Assembly (NCBI GenBank): GCA_947626955.1
Contig: CANQUB010000012.1
Coordinates: 1 to 36,288, forward strand
DNA length: 36,288 bases
Origin: an uncultured Clostridia bacterium
Lineage (GTDB): Bacteria; Bacillota; Clostridia; Christensenellales; UBA1242
Direction: 5' to 3'
This document shows positions 1-36,288 of the stretch, piece after piece (positions within the stretch are counted from its first letter, which is position 1; each line of letters begins with the position of its first letter). Under the pieces are notes generated by a model. It was given only the letters and a program-made list of their open reading frames with translations, was not told the DNA's origin and searched no databases. A program made the position numbers and the translations under genes.

Positions 1-84
1 AGGATGAAGCACAGCGCGCAGCTGAGCATTACGATAGTGGTGATAAAACAAATGAACTTTTTCATAGCCATTACCTCTATGAAA

Positions 85-113
85 ATAATAAGCACAAACG
101 TCAAAATTGTCAA
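85..113 (-). promoter_or_regulatory. Sigma-70 promoter of lipoprotein B
   Basis: Read on the minus strand, a consensus -35 TTGACA (108-113) is followed after exactly 17 bases by a -10 TATTAT (85-90). Transcription would run leftwards through base 1 and, in the circular genome, into lipoprotein B at 36276. The promoter has no nearby phage operator and points against the late genes, which suggests expression from the prophage. An identical copy drives lipoprotein A (34938-34966). Confidence 0.8.
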
Positions 114-160
114 CAAGCGGCAGAAAGGAGGAAGAAAATTTATTTCGGAGGAGGGCGAAA

Positions 161-391
161 ATGAAAGACTATGAATATTTCAAAGCGCACCGTGATGAGC
201 TGATAGAGAAATACCCCAACAAGTTTGTTGTCATCAAAAGTTGCGCCGTCGTCGCGGTGTATGACGCGTTTATGGAGGCATACAACGAAACGGTCAAGAC
301 CGAGGCGCTTGGCACGTTTATCATCCAACAGTGTGTAGACGATGACAGCACGGCGGCGCATTTTCATAACAGCAACGTTAAGTTTGCATGA
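161..391 (+). CDS. DUF5678-like small protein, copy 2
   Basis: This 76-residue protein starts at the ATG at 161 behind the ribosome site CGGAGGAGGG; the longer track ORF from a TTG at 107 is less likely. The core (KYPNKFVVIKSCAVVAVYDAF) has the short beta-rich pattern of DUF5678 proteins, roughly 'KYpgkwVAi..g.VvavgdtleEA', whose function is unknown. It lies wholly inside the repeat and is identical to the copy at 35014-35244. A terminator follows at once, so it is probably a single-gene unit divergent from the lipoprotein gene. The family assignment comes from memory of the motif and is moderate; the coding call is firm. Confidence 0.75.
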   Translation: MKDYEYFKAHRDELIEKYPNKFVVIKSCAVVAVYDAFMEAYNETVKTEALGTFIIQQCVDDDSTAAHFHNSNVKFA

Positions 392-414
392 GAAACACAA
401 TCAACAAAATCAAG

Positions 415-440
415 CGGGTGGCAAAAGCCATCCGTTTTTT
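415..440 (+). terminator. Rho-independent terminator after DUF5678 copy 2
   Basis: The stem CGGGTGGC (415-422) pairs with GCCATCCG (427-434) with one G-T wobble, an AAAA loop and six T after it. It lies just outside the repeat and is missing after the other DUF5678 copy. It separates the repeat-borne gene from the tail fibre operon. Confidence 0.85.
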
Positions 441-453
441 ATAGGAGGAATAA

Positions 454-1575
454 ATGCAAAACAAACAACTTCATGCGTTGAGGACTCTTGCGCTAAAGCT
501 GAACGTCAGCGGGACGGCGGAGGTCCTCGATGAGCAAAAGCTCTATCAAGGGAGCTATGGCTTCGTAAAATTGCAGGTGTATGCGCCAAAGACGCAGAAT
601 ACTGACACGCCCGTGTGTACGGTGTTTTGCACTACGGTGGACGAAAGGGGCGTGCGCGTTGTAAGCACCAAAAACCACTATTTGACCTACGTCGGCGAGT
701 TTGGTTTAAAAGACGGCACATACTTGCTGTTTGAGCGCTATTTGCCCAAAGACTTCACGGCAAAGGTAACCGAACCAAACGGGTTGACGATAACCGTCAA
801 TTATATGGACACCGCGCCAACGTTGGGTGAGGACGGCAGCGTGCTATATGAAGAAAACGGCGTGCAAAAGCGCCACGCGACGGATATGCTTGCGTCAAAC
901 GTATATACGACAACCGTCTATCCGGGCGGGTGGAACGACAACGGCGTCGATTTGGACATCAACTCGGCGGAGGCGGCGCAAATAGGCGTAAACACAAGCG
1001 ATATCGCCGAGCTGCAAGCCGAAGCGCTTGAGTTTAAAAACACGTTGGACGATTTCAAAGCCGATTTGCAGGCCACAAAGGATATTGCATTAAACCGCGA
1101 CAACTCTCGTGTGTTCGCCACCGTGGACGAGATGAACGAGTGGTTGAGCGTTCCGCAAAACGCGCAAAGTCTTGCAGTTGGCTCAAATTTGTTCATCGTG
1201 GACGCGGACGCTCCCGATTTTTGGTGGGACGGCTCTCAACCAATCGAAGAAAAGGACACGACGGACCTATCTATCTATTACACTAAAGACGAGGTCGAAA
1301 ACAAGTTGGTTGAGACAAAGCAGCAATTGCGTGAGCAATACGACTTTGATTATTTGACTACAACGCCCGATTCGAGCGCGCAGCGAGTTATAACGCTAAG
1401 CTATAAAGATTATAAAGAGCTGTCATACAAAGACCCAAACACGCTGTATATTGTGCCCGATGAATCTATATCGCAGAACCAAAATGGCGATATACAGGCT
1501 ATTTTGGCTAGGTTGACAGCCCTTGAGACGCGCGTGAACGAGCTTGAAAATCTTATAAAGGAGGCAAAACAATAA
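454..1575 (+). CDS. Baseplate/tail fibre protein, BppU-like
   Basis: This 373-residue protein starts behind ATAGGAGGAATAA. The N-terminal 130 residues form a beta-rich domain like the upper-baseplate (BppU/DUF2479-type) domains that anchor fibres. The middle has helical coiled-coil stretches (residues 180-210). A segment near 225-270 (VFATVDEMNEWLSVPQN, then NLFIVDADAPDFWWDG) is a sequence type common in Firmicutes phage fibres. The last 30 residues are a heptad coiled coil (LARLTALETRVNELENLIKEAK), a probable trimerisation end. The stop codon overlaps the start of the next fibre gene (TAATG), so the two are co-translated. The receptor or sugar target cannot be read from the sequence. Confidence 0.8.
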   Translation: MQNKQLHALRTLALKLNVSGTAEVLDEQKLYQGSYGFVKLQVYAPKTQNTDTPVCTVFCTTVDERGVRVVSTKNHYLTYVGEFGLKDGTYLLFERYLPKDFTAKVTEPNGLTITVNYMDTAPTLGEDGSVLYEENGVQKRHATDMLASNVYTTTVYPGGWNDNGVDLDINSAEAAQIGVNTSDIAELQAEALEFKNTLDDFKADLQATKDIALNRDNSRVFATVDEMNEWLSVPQNAQSLAVGSNLFIVDADAPDFWWDGSQPIEEKDTTDLSIYYTKDEVENKLVETKQQLREQYDFDYLTTTPDSSAQRVITLSYKDYKELSYKDPNTLYIVPDESISQNQNGDIQAILARLTALETRVNELENLIKEAKQ

Positions 1576-3375: not shown

Positions 3376-4647
3376 ATGAGCTTTTATCTTAATGGAAATT
3401 TTATCGCAGACGGAACACCGTTTTATATAAACGGCACAAAAATAGATACAAAATTATTTCTAAACGATAACCTAATATGGTCGCCAAACGAGGAGGTAAA
3501 AATTATGGCACAATTGGTTCTTAACAAGATAAGTTATCACGGCAGAGGATGTATTGCGGACCTTCCTAACGAAATTACAAAAAGAAATTTTCAAAAGGCG
3601 TTGATTTGCGTAGACCCGGATTTTGTAAAATTCGATTATGTCCAAAACGTAACGAGCGTCCTTGCCACGGCGGGTATATCTTATGAACTCTATTCCGACA
3701 TTAAATCACCATATCCGACGATAGAAAGTATACAACACGGCGTAGAAACGTATAAACAATCGGGCGCGGACTGCATTATTGCTTTCGGCGGTGCAAATGC
3801 GATGAGCGCGGCAAAGGCGATAGGCATAGTCATAACCAACCCCGAATACGCAGATATACGCTCGCTTGAGGGCGTGGCAAATACGAGAAACGAGAGCGCT
3901 CCGATATTTGCCGTCCCCGCCGAATGTACGGCAGAAGAAATCACATACGTCTATAAAATTAAAGACGCTAAAAAATCGCGCATAATGTTATGTTTAGACG
4001 TCAATGCGCTACCTATTATGGCGTTTGTGGATAGCGACCTGTTCTTGGGCGAAAAGACTGTAATCGCCCAAGACGGGATGTATACGCTGTGCAATGCAAT
4101 AGAGGGATATTTAACAAAAGGCGCATGGGAAATGACGGACATGTTTTGCCTAAAGGCTATTCAGCTTATAGCAGATAATTTGCACGGCGCTGTTGCGCAA
4201 GACGCCAACAGCCTCGAAAAGATTGCGCTGGCGCAATACATATCGGGCATGGGATGGGGCAATGCCGGCGTCGGCTTGGCAAACGCTATGGCAGAACCTC
4301 TCGTCGCGATATACGATATGCCTAAGGGGGTTGCTTGCGGCATTTTACTGCCCGCTGTTATGGAATATAACGCCCCTGTAACGGGTGAAAAATATAAGGA
4401 TATAGCAAAAGCCATGGGTCTTGAGGGCGTGGACAGCATGGGACAAGATGAATATCGTAAAGCGGCTATAGACGGTGTAAAACGGTTGAGCGCAGACGTC
4501 GGCATACCCGAGAGCTTGAAAGAGTATCTAAAAGCAGAGGACATTTCATATTGCGCGCAGTCTGCGGCAAACGGAGTTTATACGTCCGGTAACCCAAGAG
4601 AGACCAGCGAGGAAGAAATTGCGCAAATTTATAGAGCTTTGCTGTGA
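3376..4647 (+). CDS. Tail-linked FucO-type dehydrogenase fold, catalytically dead
   Basis: From the ATG at 3376 (AGGTG upstream) a 43-residue beta-rich leader (LNGNFIADGTPFYINGT) of a type seen in tail proteins runs in frame into a 380-residue protein. That protein aligns over its full length with E. coli lactaldehyde reductase FucO (shared ADIRSLEG, NAIEGY/HAIEGY, TGEKY, GNPRE). A second start, ATG 3505 with a perfect AGGAGGT, sits exactly where FucO begins. All four iron ligands of FucO are replaced: D196 by Tyr, H200 by Asn, H263 by Asn, H277 by Lys. H267 is Glu, and the nucleotide loop GGGSPQD is GGANAMS. I infer a structural or receptor-binding role, not catalysis. FucO residues are recalled from memory, but the uniform three-residue numbering offset supports the alignment. 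Confidence 0.88.
   Translation: MSFYLNGNFIADGTPFYINGTKIDTKLFLNDNLIWSPNEEVKIMAQLVLNKISYHGRGCIADLPNEITKRNFQKALICVDPDFVKFDYVQNVTSVLATAGISYELYSDIKSPYPTIESIQHGVETYKQSGADCIIAFGGANAMSAAKAIGIVITNPEYADIRSLEGVANTRNESAPIFAVPAECTAEEITYVYKIKDAKKSRIMLCLDVNALPIMAFVDSDLFLGEKTVIAQDGMYTLCNAIEGYLTKGAWEMTDMFCLKAIQLIADNLHGAVAQDANSLEKIALAQYISGMGWGNAGVGLANAMAEPLVAIYDMPKGVACGILLPAVMEYNAPVTGEKYKDIAKAMGLEGVDSMGQDEYRKAAIDGVKRLSADVGIPESLKEYLKAEDISYCAQSAANGVYTSGNPRETSEEEIAQIYRALL
3491..3507 (+). promoter_or_regulatory. Internal ribosome site and second start of the FucO-like protein
   Basis: AGGAGGT at 3491-3497 lies seven bases before the in-frame ATG at 3505. This site is stronger than the one for the upstream ATG at 3376 and coincides with the start expected for a free FucO homologue. 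The gene may therefore give two products, with and without the 43-residue leader. Confidence 0.7.
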
Positions 4648-7420: not shown

Positions 7421-7467
7421 CACAATATCTAGTGGTATTTTTAAATATAAAACCACTAGATATTGTG
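7421..7467. repeat. 16-bp perfect inverted repeat
   Basis: CACAATATCTAGTGGT (7421-7436) and ACCACTAGATATTGTG (7452-7467) are perfect inverse complements around a 15-base AT-rich spacer. It could be a terminator for the gene ending at 7387, although it is AT-rich, or a protein-binding site in the attachment region. Confidence 0.8.
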
Positions 7468-30816: not shown

Positions 30817-33800
30817 ATGCAAAATTATTATTGGAAAGTGTATTTGTGGAAAGACGGCAAGAGGGGCGACGACCTCACCAAATACGTCATGGCGCCTATC
30901 TTTTTAGAGGATAAGCTTGACGAAACGCTTGATACGGGCGAGATTATTTTAAAACGCATGCCCATATCAACCAAAACGGCTTACCCGCCCAAAACCAAGT
31001 TCCGCATAGAATGCTACCTTGACAAGGAGCACACCCAACAGCTTGACCATTGGGATATGGTTGTTGAACACGACGATGTGGAAGAGTACGTCGGTTGCCC
31101 GGACATCTGCACCCACCGCATACACCTCATAGAAGCGTCCGTTATAGCCCAAGGCATGCACGTTGACAACATAGCGCTTACCTACGAGCTGCAGGACGTC
31201 GATTTGAATTATAAGGTGGTAAATGACAGTTCTGGCGACTCACTAGATGCACTTGATAGAATTGAGGCGCAAGGCAACGGATGGGAACGTATAATACATG
31301 AAAATCAAGTAATAACTAGAGAAATGCTTGATGAAGTGGAAAAAACGGGCAACAATGAATTTGTATATTTTATCAATTCATATAATTATGTATGGCGCGA
31401 CTATGATGATTTAAAGTCATTAAAGACAAGGTATAACGCCTTAAATTCACATAGCATTGAGTTTACAATTCCGACTTTAATAATACAAGGTGCTAAAGAC
31501 GGGGAATGGGTGGACATTTGCGAGGCTCAAACTGAAACAACAATAATTATAAAACATTGTAGAGGTGATGAGATTTTAAGTAGTAAAGAACAAAAAATTA
31601 TTTGTGGGCCCACTAATTTATCTGAAACAACAAGTTATCCCGAATTATATCAAGTAAGAGAAATGTCGGGTCGTCGAGAGTATTATCCTACATCAATAGA
31701 TGGAATATCTTCTTACACTTATCTTGAAAACGGGACTTGGAATGAGCCCTTTGATTTTTCCGATCATTATTCACTCATTGACGGAGGTCCGACTCGTTCT
31801 TGTATATTTACATGGGAAAATGCTCAAGCAAAAAGTAAACGAATTACACTTGAAACGGAAATATTAACCGATGCACAACTTGCAGCGCATGAATATTTTA
31901 AATATGAAATTCATACAAGGGTGTATGATGAGAAAGTGTGGGTGGATGCCGAAATTGATGGGGATACACAGCATGTAATGTTACAAAGGGTATTTCCAAC
32001 TTATTATGAGACGAGGTCGCAAATATGGTACTATAATGGCCAATTTCATGTTTCCAGTTATCAACTTGAAAATACTCCTACATATCACGAATGGGTAAAT
32101 TGCAACGATATTTATTTTACAGCAGATTTTGAAGTAGGGGACACATCAACATTTGTTGACGGAGGTGCATTCCTGAAAAAAGCTGCGCCATATAATTGTC
32201 TACAGTTTTTGCAAAAGGCGTTGCTTACTGTCGACACACAAGTACTAGATATAAGGACGGAGTCTCTTGACGGATTAAAAGACAAATATCCCATATATGT
32301 GGATAATTCAGCACCAGATTATTGGAAAAATCAACTTGAGTCATGTCAGATGAATGAAACGGTGTTTGAGCAAAAAAACTTATGGGAAGTGCTCATTCAG
32401 ATAGGCTATTATCGTCATGCTATTCCGTATTTGGAATTTGCGGAGGATGGGACAGACCGCTTTGTGTTAAAGTTTCATCAGCTTGGCGACACAAAGCAAA
32501 AGACGGATAGTAACACCAAAATAACGGTGTTCAATAGTCGGAATCTATCCGATTATTTCACGCAATATGACAGCTATGTTACCAACTTTTTTTCACCTCA
32601 AAACGAGGTGGAAGAGTGGCTCGTTCCTAAAACCAGCGACAGCTCATATCTTGTGTCAAACGACACAGCAGAAATTCATACTAAGTATCCGATACAAGGA
32701 ATCAAGGAATTTGATTTAATTTATAATGGGCGTTCACATTCGGCATTAAACATGATTTTTGAGAAGGCGGTGTATCAAGTTTTAACGCCTTCAATAGAAA
32801 TAAGACCATCGAAGGCAAGCGCATTATATTATTCTTTAGGGGATAACAAAATTTTAGGATTAACTTATATTCCCCCGAACAAAAATAACGGGGATGACTC
32901 ATTTGCCTTAAAAAATATTTTAAGCTTATTATTCGGAACGAACCCTAACGGGGATATAAAATTTAATGATATACTGTTCCATATTAAATATATAGCAAAG
33001 GATAGCCTTAGAATATCGGAAGTACGCCCAGATATATTTAAATACATGAGAAGTTCTATGTATGAGAAATATCCGCACCATGAGCAGTTTTACGGCCAGC
33101 AGGATAAAATTGTGGACAGCGAGAGGTTTAGCGCCAACCTGTTTGGCAAGCTGATAAGGGTCGGCAATGCCGTGTATCAGCGGCAAGAGTATGTCAGCAA
33201 TGCGCAAGACAGGAAAGAGAGCGGCGACCTTGTTATGCTGGGCGTAGAACCCTACTATGTTACAGCGGTTGAAAATGAATGTTATGCGGACGCAATGTTG
33301 CAAAAGGTAACTTACTCTAAAAACTTCAACCAGCTGTCTAATATTGTAACAATTCCTAGCGAGCCTCGATTTTATGAGGTGAGCGAAAGGTCAGAAGTTA
33401 GGCGAGAAGTCCGCATTTTGGACTTTTTAACATTAACAACCAATGAGAAAGCGCCTCAAAAATCATCGATGTTCATTAAGGATAAATATTGGCAAAATTT
33501 TGTAAGAGGAACTATTTTTGCGGATACAGCATTAGAACCCCCGAATTTTGCTTATACAAGATTTCAGGTCGATAAAAAGCGTAAGCGTGCAGGATGTTCT
33601 ATTCCCGATGAAAAGTTGTTTCCAAGTTGTGAGGTTGAACGAAAAGGGGAAAATAGTATAGTTCCTAAAGCTTCTAGTGATCATATCGATGTTGTTTGCC
33701 CTCTCATGTGTTTCCCCCTTAAAAACGCAATTGTTTTTGAATGGGATATGGACGACAATTTTAAGGCTGGAGATAGTATTGATACTCAAACAAACGAGGC

Positions 33801-34407
33801 AAATGATACACTAGATCAAGCTTATTTTTCGATGACTCCTGTTAGATATTGCGACATCTTTGGGCGCGCTGATTTGTTTAGATTTGGGCTGTTTTATAAA
33901 AAGAATTGGGATATAAATCAAATTCGACGTCTCCCGTTTGTGGACGAGTCGGACGATTTTTTTAATACAAACGAAGTAATGTTTGAATTGCCGCCCAATT
34001 ATGCTATTGCACTTGATAAAGATAATAGAGAGGCATTATCTTTTAACTATCAAATAAATATGGTGCATAACGACCAGTTTTTAACTTTTGCAAATTTATT
34101 TGGATCAAAGGGTAGTCGATTGCGGATGTGTTTATTAAACACGGAGGTTCCTAAGTTCTCTGAAACTGTCCCACTAAAGGAACCAAACTTAATATATGAT
34201 AATGTATCATATTCTTTTGACGAAGGCAGCAATGCATTGCATGTAAAAATCGAAGTCCCAACAGGGATAAATATTAGCCAAGTAAAATCAATTGTTTTAT
34301 ACGAGGAGGATGCAGCATCTAAATATGCATATATATGTAGAAATGTTGCAAATAGAGATGATAATGACAAACTTAAAGATTGGTGGATATACCCAGCTAT
34401 TGATTAA
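30817..34407 (+). CDS. Tail hub / tail-tip protein with variable C-terminus
   Basis: This 1196-residue protein starts behind ACGGAGTG. The N-terminal 130 residues (YWKVYLWKDGKRGDDLT, then HWDMVVEHDDVEEYVG and CTHRIHLIEAS) look like the conserved hub part of tail-tip proteins. AT-rich blocks (about 31210-32390, 32640-33050, 33340-34407) alternate with GC-richer conserved blocks, so the gene is a mosaic. The last 140 residues (YAIALDKDNREALSFNYQIN at the start, LKDWWIYPAID at the end) are homologous to the detached domain at 35270-35752. This domain is the probable receptor-contacting tip. Its stop overlaps the antisense lipoprotein A gene by 11 bases. Confidence 0.85.
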   Translation: MQNYYWKVYLWKDGKRGDDLTKYVMAPIFLEDKLDETLDTGEIILKRMPISTKTAYPPKTKFRIECYLDKEHTQQLDHWDMVVEHDDVEEYVGCPDICTHRIHLIEASVIAQGMHVDNIALTYELQDVDLNYKVVNDSSGDSLDALDRIEAQGNGWERIIHENQVITREMLDEVEKTGNNEFVYFINSYNYVWRDYDDLKSLKTRYNALNSHSIEFTIPTLIIQGAKDGEWVDICEAQTETTIIIKHCRGDEILSSKEQKIICGPTNLSETTSYPELYQVREMSGRREYYPTSIDGISSYTYLENGTWNEPFDFSDHYSLIDGGPTRSCIFTWENAQAKSKRITLETEILTDAQLAAHEYFKYEIHTRVYDEKVWVDAEIDGDTQHVMLQRVFPTYYETRSQIWYYNGQFHVSSYQLENTPTYHEWVNCNDIYFTADFEVGDTSTFVDGGAFLKKAAPYNCLQFLQKALLTVDTQVLDIRTESLDGLKDKYPIYVDNSAPDYWKNQLESCQMNETVFEQKNLWEVLIQIGYYRHAIPYLEFAEDGTDRFVLKFHQLGDTKQKTDSNTKITVFNSRNLSDYFTQYDSYVTNFFSPQNEVEEWLVPKTSDSSYLVSNDTAEIHTKYPIQGIKEFDLIYNGRSHSALNMIFEKAVYQVLTPSIEIRPSKASALYYSLGDNKILGLTYIPPNKNNGDDSFALKNILSLLFGTNPNGDIKFNDILFHIKYIAKDSLRISEVRPDIFKYMRSSMYEKYPHHEQFYGQQDKIVDSERFSANLFGKLIRVGNAVYQRQEYVSNAQDRKESGDLVMLGVEPYYVTAVENECYADAMLQKVTYSKNFNQLSNIVTIPSEPRFYEVSERSEVRREVRILDFLTLTTNEKAPQKSSMFIKDKYWQNFVRGTIFADTALEPPNFAYTRFQVDKKRKRAGCSIPDEKLFPSCEVERKGENSIVPKASSDHIDVVCPLMCFPLKNAIVFEWDMDDNFKAGDSIDTQTNEANDTLDQAYFSMTPVRYCDIFGRADLFRFGLFYKKNWDINQIRRLPFVDESDDFFNTNEVMFELPPNYAIALDKDNREALSFNYQINMVHNDQFLTFANLFGSKGSRLRMCLLNTEVPKFSETVPLKEPNLIYDNVSYSFDEGSNALHVKIEVPTGINISQVKSIVLYEEDAASKYAYICRNVANRDDNDKLKDWWIYPAID

Positions 34408-34918
34408 GAGGTGGAAAATTTGAAAAAATCAACTTCTCTTCATATCTTGTGGTTTTCTCGTATAAAACAATATATCCGCTTGCCTCAATAAAAGTACATG
34501 AAGGATAAGTTCTTTTTATTCTAGTCCAATCATCGGCATCCATGTATGGCATAACATATTGTTCTCTTTGTTCTATAAGGAACCAATCATCTTCCAATGG
34601 CGTTCCGGACAAAAATAAATTGTGATTTACATACATGGTGTGGTCCCCATGATAATATGCACTGAACTTGTAAAATTCAGACGTGCTGTCTTTTTCGGTA
34701 TAAGAAGCGGAAATAGACAATATGTCGTTGGTACCTTTGTAATAAGTTACAGACCAATCTATATTATTGATGGTTTCATTAAAATGATATGTGATTAAGT
34801 TCTGTGTAGGTTTATCCAGTTGCTCCGCATTTTCGTCGGAAGCGCATCCCGTCAGGATGAAGCACAGCGCGCAGCTGAGCATTACGATAGTGGTGATAAA
34901 ACAAATGAACTTTTTCAT
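34397..34918 (-). CDS. Prophage lipoprotein A (superinfection exclusion candidate)
   Basis: This 173-residue protein starts at ATG 34918, seven bases after AGAGGT; the track start adds 17 residues without a ribosome site. The signal peptide (MKKFICFITTIVMLSCALCF) ends in the lipobox LTGC with Cys25, so it is a membrane-anchored surface lipoprotein. The mature part is a polar beta-rich domain (DWSVTYYKGTNDILSISASY) with no family I recognise. It converges with the hub gene and has its own strong promoter in the repeat. Position and expression fit exclusion lipoproteins such as Ltp of phage TP-J34; this role is inferred. Confidence 0.8.
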   Translation of the reverse strand: MKKFICFITTIVMLSCALCFILTGCASDENAEQLDKPTQNLITYHFNETINNIDWSVTYYKGTNDILSISASYTEKDSTSEFYKFSAYYHGDHTMYVNHNLFLSGTPLEDDWFLIEQREQYVMPYMDADDWTRIKRTYPSCTFIEASGYIVLYEKTTRYEEKLIFSNFPPLNQ

Positions 34919-34937
34919 AGCCATTACCTCTATGAAA

Positions 34938-34966
34938 ATAATAAGCACAAACGTCAAAATTGTCAA
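34938..34966 (-). promoter_or_regulatory. Sigma-70 promoter of lipoprotein A
   Basis: A copy of the promoter at 85-113: TTGACA (34961-34966), 17 bases, TATTAT (34938-34943) on the minus strand. It gives independent leftward expression of lipoprotein A. Confidence 0.8.
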
Positions 34967-35013
34967 CAAGCGGCAGAAAGGAGGAAGAAAATTTATTTCG
35001 GAGGAGGGCGAAA

Positions 35014-35244
35014 ATGAAAGACTATGAATATTTCAAAGCGCACCGTGATGAGCTGATAGAGAAATACCCCAACAAGTTTGTTGTCATCAAAAGTTGCGCC
35101 GTCGTCGCGGTGTATGACGCGTTTATGGAGGCATACAACGAAACGGTCAAGACCGAGGCGCTTGGCACGTTTATCATCCAACAGTGTGTAGACGATGACA
35201 GCACGGCGGCGCATTTTCATAACAGCAACGTTAAGTTTGCATGA
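35014..35244 (+). CDS. DUF5678-like small protein, copy 1
   Basis: This 76-residue protein is identical to the product at 161-391, with the same ribosome site. Unlike copy 2 it has no terminator after it: the repeat ends 18 bases after its stop and the detached hub domain begins at once. A transcript from here would therefore run into that domain. Its role is unknown; two exact copies in one genome are a consequence of the repeat. Confidence 0.75.
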   Translation: MKDYEYFKAHRDELIEKYPNKFVVIKSCAVVAVYDAFMEAYNETVKTEALGTFIIQQCVDDDSTAAHFHNSNVKFA

Positions 35245-35262
35245 GAAACACAATCAACAAAA

Positions 35263-35752
35263 ACTTCCGATGGCTGTCATAACTCCGAACGAGAGCGACT
35301 GCATTGCTTATCTTCCATCTCCGTACACGATAGGACTAGATAAAGATAATCGAGAGGAGCTTTCTTTCAACTATCAAATAAATCTATTGCATCGACCGAC
35401 GGAGGACGACACCGAGGACTTTATTACTTTTCCGAATCTTTTTGGACAAAAAGACGGCCCATTAAAACTCTTCTTCATGAGAGAACCACAAAGCCTATTT
35501 AATGGGAACATTAAATTGACACTTAATAGCACATTGGCAATTGAGGAGTGGAATACCCCAATTGAACATGATGATATTAATGCAATTGAGATTAAAATTA
35601 CCGCGCCGAAGAATGTCGCAGTTAAAGATATTCAGTCAATTGCTCTATGTTCAGTCGATAAAGATAATAGGGTTACAGCATATATCGTCAAAAATGTTCA
35701 GGGATACTCTGATGATGAAAAATTAAAAAGTTGGTGGATATATCCTGTATAA
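35263..35752 (+). pseudogene. Detached hub C-terminal domain (silent cassette)
   Basis: From ATG 35270 an open frame of 160 residues is homologous to the last 140 residues of the tail hub: YTIGLDKDNREELSFNYQIN against YAIALDKDNREALSFNYQIN, a shared NLFG, SIALCSVD against SIVLYEED, and LKSWWIYPV against LKDWWIYPA. The middle is diverged. No ribosome site precedes the ATG (ACAAAAACTTCCG), and the domain begins exactly where the repeat ends. I read it as a silent alternative tip for the hub, with intact reading frame, rather than a decayed gene. It could also be translated as a small free tip protein. Confidence 0.8.
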
Positions 35753-35763
35753 TAACCCCACGC

Positions 35764-36276
35764 TTATAACTCAAATATTATATTTTTGAGGCATTTGGAA
35801 TTGCCTAAATCAAATCCGACGACGATGTATTGATAGTCAGAAGAATTTATGCGCGGAGGACGGTACTCGACACTTTCATTAGGGTGAATGATTGTGTCAT
35901 TGTTTTTAGTGAACCATGTGAAATATTCGTCATCAATATATGAAACGCCTGCAAACGCAATGTTTCCAAGTGGGAAAGGCATCGGTGAGAGGTTCTTGAC
36001 AATAAATACTTCGAGCTGCTCTCTATTGTCCCACCCGACAAAAGTTACCTCAGCCATGATAGAGTTATTAGAATAAAGTGTCGCGGTTTCACCTTTTTTG
36101 TAAACTTTCATCGGTGCAGGTGCTTGTGATTGTAACGATTCGAGTTGTTCTTGAAGCTCTGATATTTGATTTTTAAGGGCATCAATTTCGTCCTCCTGCC
36201 CGCATCCCGTTAGGATGAAGCACAGCGCGCAGCTGAGCATTACGATAGTGGTGATAAAACAAATGAACTTTTTCAT
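35764..36276 (-). CDS. Prophage lipoprotein B (superinfection exclusion candidate)
   Basis: This 170-residue protein starts at ATG 36276, as in lipoprotein A. The signal peptide is identical to that of A through the lipobox Cys25 (LTGC); the mature sequence is unrelated. It has a coiled-coil stalk (IDALKNQISELQEQLESLQSQ) and a beta-sandwich (GETATLYSNNSIMAEVTFVGW, then EVFIVKNLSPMPFPLG) that resembles DUF4352-type domains. Its promoter lies at 85-113 across the contig junction. It is paired head-on with the detached hub domain, as A is with the intact hub gene. An exclusion role is inferred. Confidence 0.8.
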   Translation of the reverse strand: MKKFICFITTIVMLSCALCFILTGCGQEDEIDALKNQISELQEQLESLQSQAPAPMKVYKKGETATLYSNNSIMAEVTFVGWDNREQLEVFIVKNLSPMPFPLGNIAFAGVSYIDDEYFTWFTKNNDTIIHPNESVEYRPPRINSSDYQYIVVGFDLGNSKCLKNIIFEL

Positions 36277-36288
36277 AGCCATTACCTC
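36201..36288. repeat. Direct repeat copy R2 (left part) and terminal overlap
   Basis: Bases 36212-36288 equal bases 1-77, so the two ends of the window overlap by 77 bases. This length equals a common assembler k-mer, which suggests a contig closed to a circle. Bases 36201-36211 extend the repeat leftwards and contain the one base that differs from copy R1. Confidence 0.9.

What the first reader, a model, noticed from the sequence alone, without database searches (positions are those of the whole stretch)
34843..34918. Lipoprotein homology ends exactly at the lipobox cysteine
The two lipoprotein genes share promoter, leader and signal peptide (one silent difference) up to the codon of Cys25 plus one base; the very next bases are unrelated. 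The recombination border thus coincides with the protein-processing border. This is what is expected of a module exchange that keeps expression and export constant and changes only the surface domain, like variable surface lipoprotein systems.
Basis: seen in the sequence. Interest (0 to 1): 0.75.

Follow-up and report, generated by a model that had tools for sequence, protein, structure and literature searches.

The report
Phage lipoproteins swapped at their anchor
Temperate phages of gut Clostridia carry, beside a tail gene, a lipoprotein gene whose promoter and export signal stay constant while the surface part is exchanged at the lipid-anchor cysteine; in several relatives the gene also looks switchable on and off by a run of C's, suggesting a changeable surface shield made by the resident phage.

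Summary
The two lipoprotein genes match, bar one silent base, up to the first base after the lipobox Cys codon, then are unrelated. But the shared block is 420 bp, not 88: the contig is circular (77-bp end overlap) and repeat R also holds a DUF5678 gene. What lies between the R copies is a cassette of a headless tail-protein C-terminal domain plus the second lipoprotein's mature part. One relative (L071) has an L046-like leader fused to an L033-like mature part, switching at -4..+7 nt from the Cys codon (0 of 2000 permutations): a second, independent lipobox breakpoint. L007 breaks earlier, at a poly-C tract, and carries another membrane protein. Unexpected: leaders of five relatives carry 9-14 C in frame-setting position, two assembled out of frame, so the gene is probably phase-variable there (not in the window). 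Best reading: a lysogenic-conversion/superinfection-exclusion lipoprotein with domain exchange at the lipobox, placed like T5 Llp. Function untested.

The parts
30817..34407 (+). tail gene (1196 aa); residues 1039-1196 are the C-terminal domain that has a second copy
   Evidence: relatives L007, L008, L009, L046 at 42-53% identity
34397..34924 (-). lipoprotein 1 (leader A, mature type 1), convergent with and overlapping the tail gene by 11 bp
   Evidence: homologue in L046, 36% identity, 2e-32
34843..35262 (.). direct repeat R, copy 1: lipobox Cys codon + signal peptide + RBS + promoter (minus strand), and DUF5678 gene (plus strand)
34938..34966 (-). sigma-70-type promoter TTGACA-17-TATTAT of lipoprotein 1
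   Evidence: 11 of 12 matches
35014..35244 (+). DUF5678 small gene (76 aa), inside R
   Evidence: PF18929 4e-5, just over its cut-off
35264..35752 (+). headless second C-terminal domain of the tail protein, open, no ribosome site seen; starts at the Leu-Pro domain border
   Evidence: 38-39% identity to the tail protein's C-terminus; no stop in 162 codons, 0 of 5000 shuffles open
35764..36282 (-). lipoprotein 2 (leader A, mature type 2: coiled coil then a predicted beta-rich part)
   Evidence: low-confidence model
36201..36288 (.). direct repeat R, copy 2, first part; continues at 1-409 on the circular molecule (36212-36288 = 1-77)
1..409 (.). direct repeat R, copy 2, remaining part (identical to 34854-35262)
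161..391 (+). second copy of the DUF5678 gene
412..440 (+). intrinsic terminator after R copy 2, absent after R copy 1
   Evidence: -17.4 kcal/mol, z -4.8, followed by a U run
454..1575 (+). baseplate (BppU-like) gene that borders the slot in most relatives of this group

Best explanation
The slot between the tail gene and the baseplate gene of this group of temperate phages holds a membrane-anchored protein expressed by the prophage from its own sigma-70 promoter, against the late operon. Its 5' module (promoter, RBS, signal peptide, lipobox) stays constant while the mature part is replaced by recombination whose border falls at the lipobox: shown for the window pair and for L071. The likely route is annealing-type recombination by the phage's RecT/YqaJ at the short conserved lipobox DNA or in flanking shared DNA, followed by selection, since only junctions that keep signal peptide, frame and Cys give an exported lipoprotein (inferred). 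In the window phage a recent recombination put two cassettes [tail C-terminal domain + lipoprotein] in tandem between 420-bp direct repeats, one complete and one with a headless C-terminal domain (structure shown; origin inferred). Inferred function: the lipoprotein sits on the lysogen's surface and blocks entry of competing phages (superinfection exclusion, as T5/BF23 Llp beside the receptor-binding gene), and exchange of its mature part changes which phages are excluded.
For: W1/W2 changepoint +3..+4 nt. L071: leader 59/75 nt identical to L046 but 18/84 from +9 after the Cys codon; mature 77/90 identical to L033; three-sequence changepoint -4..+7, 0 of 2000 permutations. Type 1 mature with leaders A (window) and B (L046); SecDF_P1-like mature (PF22599 3e-17, 2e-6, 3e-12 in L009, L033, L058) with leaders B and C. 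All are on the minus strand, convergent with the tail gene, with promoters TTGACW-(17-18)-TATAAT in the leader-B relatives. RecT (4e-36) and YqaJ (1.5e-19) in the phage; integrase and S24 repressor make it temperate. T5 and BF23 carry receptor-binding gene + adjacent receptor-blocking lipoprotein pairs whose lipoproteins are not homologous (PMC4728585).
Against: Only two breakpoints are resolved to the codon; the linker after Cys is so variable that diverged pairs of the same mature type also look unrelated there. L007 breaks at the poly-C tract. No exclusion activity is shown and no defence or Ltp family matches. The tail C-terminal domain is only moderately variable (43-48% identity) while residues 131-450 vary most (18-34%), so it need not be the receptor-binding part. 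The same tail family goes with type 1 and SecD-type lipoproteins, so a cognate tail/lipoprotein pair is not demonstrated. The tandem structure rests on one assembly.
Confidence: 0.6

Rival explanations
1. Selection filter only: recombination is illegitimate and random, and the lipobox border is simply where functional fusions survive, with no targeting and no special role.
For: Under uniform borders two hits within about 12 nt in 520- and 735-nt genes have p about 4e-4, but if only borders between the end of the leader and about 20 linker codons are viable p rises to about 0.03 (my arithmetic from the intervals). L007 shows a viable border elsewhere.
Against: Both resolved borders lie within 7 nt of the Cys codon rather than spread over the linker.
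Confidence: 0.45
2. Switchable two-cassette system: the headless C-terminal domain and lipoprotein 2 are an archive that is exchanged with the active tail end and lipoprotein 1 by recombination in R and in the conserved C-terminal motif.
For: Open headless domain starting at the domain border; 420-bp direct repeats; 63 nt at 81% identity shared by the two C-terminal domains; GC of active C-term/lipo1 (0.34/0.35) and of second C-term/lipo2 (0.38/0.39) agree within each cassette.
Against: Direct repeats give deletion, not reversible exchange; no relative has the duplication; no reads.
Confidence: 0.2
3. The tandem arrangement is a graph artefact of two co-existing phage variants that share R.
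For: MAG contig with an exact 77-bp end overlap, typical of a k=77 de Bruijn circle; R is longer than k, so the order of the two R copies depends on read pairing.
Against: The R/headless-domain junction itself must be present in reads; both lipoprotein genes and the domain are intact.
Confidence: 0.15
4. The lipoproteins are lysogenic-conversion factors for host fitness, not for phage exclusion.
For: SecDF_P1-like and coiled-coil/beta-rich mature parts have no known exclusion function.
Against: Conserved place next to tail genes as in T5 oad-llp, and probable phase variation in relatives.
Confidence: 0.3

Closest known systems
T5 oad-llp and BF23 hrs-llp module (receptor-binding protein + receptor-blocking lipoprotein)
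   Same: lipoprotein gene next to a tail gene; non-homologous lipoproteins in the same place in related phages (PMC4728585)
   Different: T5-like phages are lytic and infect Gram-negatives; here a temperate phage, own promoter, leader shared at DNA level, border at the lipobox, poly-C tract in relatives; tail partner not shown to bind a receptor
Ltp-type superinfection-exclusion lipoproteins (S. thermophilus TP-J34)
   Same: prophage-encoded lipoprotein built of lipid anchor, spacer and active domain (PMC3952083)
   Different: ltp lies in the lysogeny module and has the Ltp repeat domain; here beside the tail gene and no Ltp domain
Mycoplasma Vpma/Vsp variable lipoproteins
   Same: conserved 5' untranslated region and signal peptide, variable surface part (PMC2268961)
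   Different: there site-specific inversion by a dedicated recombinase; none found here; mature parts are wholly unrelated families
Homopolymer contingency genes (e.g. Bordetella, PMC1891110; Neisseria, PMC5084427)
   Same: C tract early in the reading frame sets ON/OFF in five relatives
   Different: carried by phages of Clostridia; absent from the window's genes

Membership tests
T5 Llp receptor-blocking lipoproteins | signal peptide and lipobox | tested here: met
   MKKFICFITTIVMLSCALCFILTGC
T5 Llp receptor-blocking lipoproteins | gene adjacent to the receptor-binding tail gene | tested here: inconclusive
   adjacent to a tail gene, but receptor binding of that tail protein is unproven
T5 Llp receptor-blocking lipoproteins | blocks the receptor of its own phage | not testable with these tools
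   needs expression and infection assays
Ltp-type Sie lipoproteins | Ltp repeat domain | tested here: not met
   no such Pfam match for either lipoprotein
Mycoplasma Vpma/Vsp-type system | conserved leader, variable mature part | tested here: met
Mycoplasma Vpma/Vsp-type system | inverted repeats / site-specific inversion | tested here: not met
   no inverted repeats of 25 nt or more in the window
Homopolymer phase-variable gene | mononucleotide tract early in frame, lengths differing among relatives, ON and OFF states | tested here: met
   for relatives L007, L009, L032, L046, L071, not for the window; length mixtures within one population not testable on assemblies
Homopolymer phase-variable gene | tract in the window's own lipoprotein genes | tested here: not met
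   no C/G run of 8 or more in the window

The most novel reading that the evidence does not exclude
Temperate phages of gut Clostridia carry a contingency locus for superinfection exclusion: a constant promoter/export leader with a poly-C ON/OFF switch, onto which unrelated surface domains (including a SecD P1-like one) are swapped at the lipobox by annealing recombination; the window phage holds two alternative [tail end + lipoprotein] cassettes at once.
Probability: 0.25. Interest if true: 0.8.

Novelty: new variant of a known kind. Interest (0 to 1): 0.6.

Why it matters
It gives a case where recombination borders in a phage surface protein fall at a protein-processing site in two independent lineages, and ties it to a tail-adjacent slot with an apparent ON/OFF tract. 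If right, prophages diversify and switch a surface shield without touching its expression or export, which makes exclusion specificity in uncultured gut Clostridia directly testable by swapping mature domains behind one leader.

Tried and rejected
Close relatives of the lipoproteins or the DUF5678 gene in viral contigs: none; headless domain: none. Annotated phages: no tail match. Structure models of both lipoproteins are too poor (pLDDT 52) for fold searches, so none were run. Tail profile against PHROGs and PDB: nothing. L053, a promoter-pattern hit, is a chance match inside a coding gene. DUF5678 homologues in G097 and G322 lie beside an aspartyl-protease-like gene, not beside a lipoprotein. 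Gapped global identities 'after Cys' are inflated by free end gaps; the ungapped, Cys-anchored counts were used instead.

Full report
Observation. Identity stops one base after the lipobox Cys codon, and the following 60 nt are near chance level; the likelihood changepoint is +3..+4 nt from the first base of the codon. The block is larger than it looked. The window is the whole contig C12 of a 1.2-Mb MAG, and its first and last 77 bases are identical, as for a circle assembled with k = 77 (inference). On the 36,211-bp circle the repeat R is 420 bp with one mismatch; it runs from the Cys codon through leader, promoter and a complete DUF5678 gene.

Anatomy. Between R copy 1 and R copy 2 lie a headless second C-terminal domain of the tail protein and the mature part of lipoprotein 2; before R copy 1 lie the complete tail gene and lipoprotein 1. 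The second C-terminal domain begins at the Leu-Pro that opens the domain in the relatives, is open for 162 codons (0 of 5000 shuffles) and has no ribosome site that I can see. It is 38-39% identical to the active domain, a distance similar to that between the active domain and those of other phages (43-48%), whereas R is almost identical. So R is young and the two cassettes are not a simple recent duplication: a recombination with a different phage, or homogenised repeats, is needed (inference). GC content agrees within each cassette (0.34/0.35 and 0.38/0.39), a weak hint that tail end and lipoprotein moved together. A strong terminator follows R copy 2 only.

Relatives. Profile searches gave phages with 42-53% identical tail proteins, and more distant ones, mostly with the order tail - slot - BppU-like gene. 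The slot holds a minus-strand lipoprotein convergent with the tail gene in L009, L032, L033, L058 and L071; in L046 it lies one small gene further on; L007 has a membrane protein of another kind; L008, L057, L061, L062, L063 and L073 have no lipoprotein there. Mature parts fall into types: type 1 (window lipoprotein 1 and L046, 36% identity), type 2 (window lipoprotein 2), and a SecDF_P1-head-like type (L009, L033, L058 by PF22599; L032 and L071 by alignment). Leaders fall into A (window), B (L046, L009, L032, L033, L071, and the start of L007) and C (L058). Type 1 occurs with A and B, SecD type with B and C, leader A with types 1 and 2, leader B with type 1, SecD type and the L007 protein. 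That is reassortment.

L071 is the sharp case. Its leader matches L046 at 59 of 75 nt and then, from +9, at 18 of 84; its mature part matches L033 at 77 of 90. Sites at which L046 and L033 differ switch from L046-like (15 of 21) to L033-like (72 of 77) at +6, support interval -4..+7, with no permutation of 2000 as good. A second lineage thus has its border at the lipobox. L046/L033 (protein-level local alignment ends at Cys-Gly) agrees but is less sharp. For W1/L046 and for L058 the border can only be bracketed between the Cys and the folded part. L007 is a counter-example: the same promoter and start run into a different transmembrane protein right after the C tract.

Poly-C tract. In L009 (10), L046 (14), L032 (9), L007 (9) and L071 (13) a C run follows the first 6-9 codons; in each of these loci it is the only C/G run of 8 or more in the DNA held. 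As assembled, L009, L046 and L071 read through; L032 and L007 are out of frame and would open with 10 and with 8 or 11 C. The contig of L071 begins exactly in its tract and repeats it later, as if the assembler stopped there. Consensus assemblies cannot show length mixtures, so phase variation is inferred. The leader-B promoter pattern is found in 2 of 396 genomes of the order, both in this slot, and in two of the viral contigs plus one chance hit. The window's leader A has no tract.

Mechanism. The gene has its own strong promoter opposed to the late operon, as expected of genes expressed by the prophage. The phage encodes RecT and YqaJ; such annealing systems can join DNA over short homologies (established knowledge). 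Lipobox DNA (GGNTGYG) is a stretch that otherwise unrelated lipoprotein genes share, so a junction there is both seeded and tolerated (inference). The exclusion function rests on analogy: T5 and BF23 keep unrelated receptor-blocking lipoproteins beside their receptor-binding genes (PMC4728585), and Ltp of TP-J34 consists of anchor, spacer and active domain (PMC3952083).

Verdict. The border is real, reproduced once independently, and part of a wider pattern of domain exchange in a tail-adjacent slot. Exactness at the codon may come from selection alone. Function and switching remain to be shown.

Noticed in passing
L062 15398-15407 and 16426-16434; L063 17083-17091, 18118-18127, 18730-18739: Tandem tail-collar-fibre-like genes each carry a run of 9-10 G, mostly a few codons after the start; two of the three in L063 are assembled out of frame and open with one G fewer or more. 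Looks like phase-variable tail fibres in phages related to the window's.
   Followed up: partly
window 3499-4647: Full-length iron alcohol dehydrogenase close to lactaldehyde reductase FucO (NCBIfam PRK10624 1e-138, below its cut-off) inside the phage baseplate region; the only such gene found in the host MAG.
   Followed up: partly
L009 11500-12288, L033 5178-5864, L058 11560-12144, L071 6783-7517: Phage lipoproteins whose mature part is a SecDF P1-head-like domain, possibly a decoy or modulator of the secretion machinery.
   Followed up: partly
L072 1-5525 and L071 7477-13001 (G474:C5): The contig carries the same stretch twice (identical over the 5525 bases compared) and starts exactly inside the poly-C tract of the lipoprotein leader.
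   Followed up: partly
L007 12147-12863: A PBECR3-type nuclease-domain gene (5e-11) sits between tail and baseplate genes, another cargo of the same slot.
   Followed up: no
L046 2456-6045: Tail gene split into two reading frames after about 170 residues by a stop/start overlap.
   Followed up: no
window 7421-7467: Imperfect self-match (88%) on the opposite strand just downstream of the integrase gene: possible attachment-site arm or terminator.
   Followed up: no
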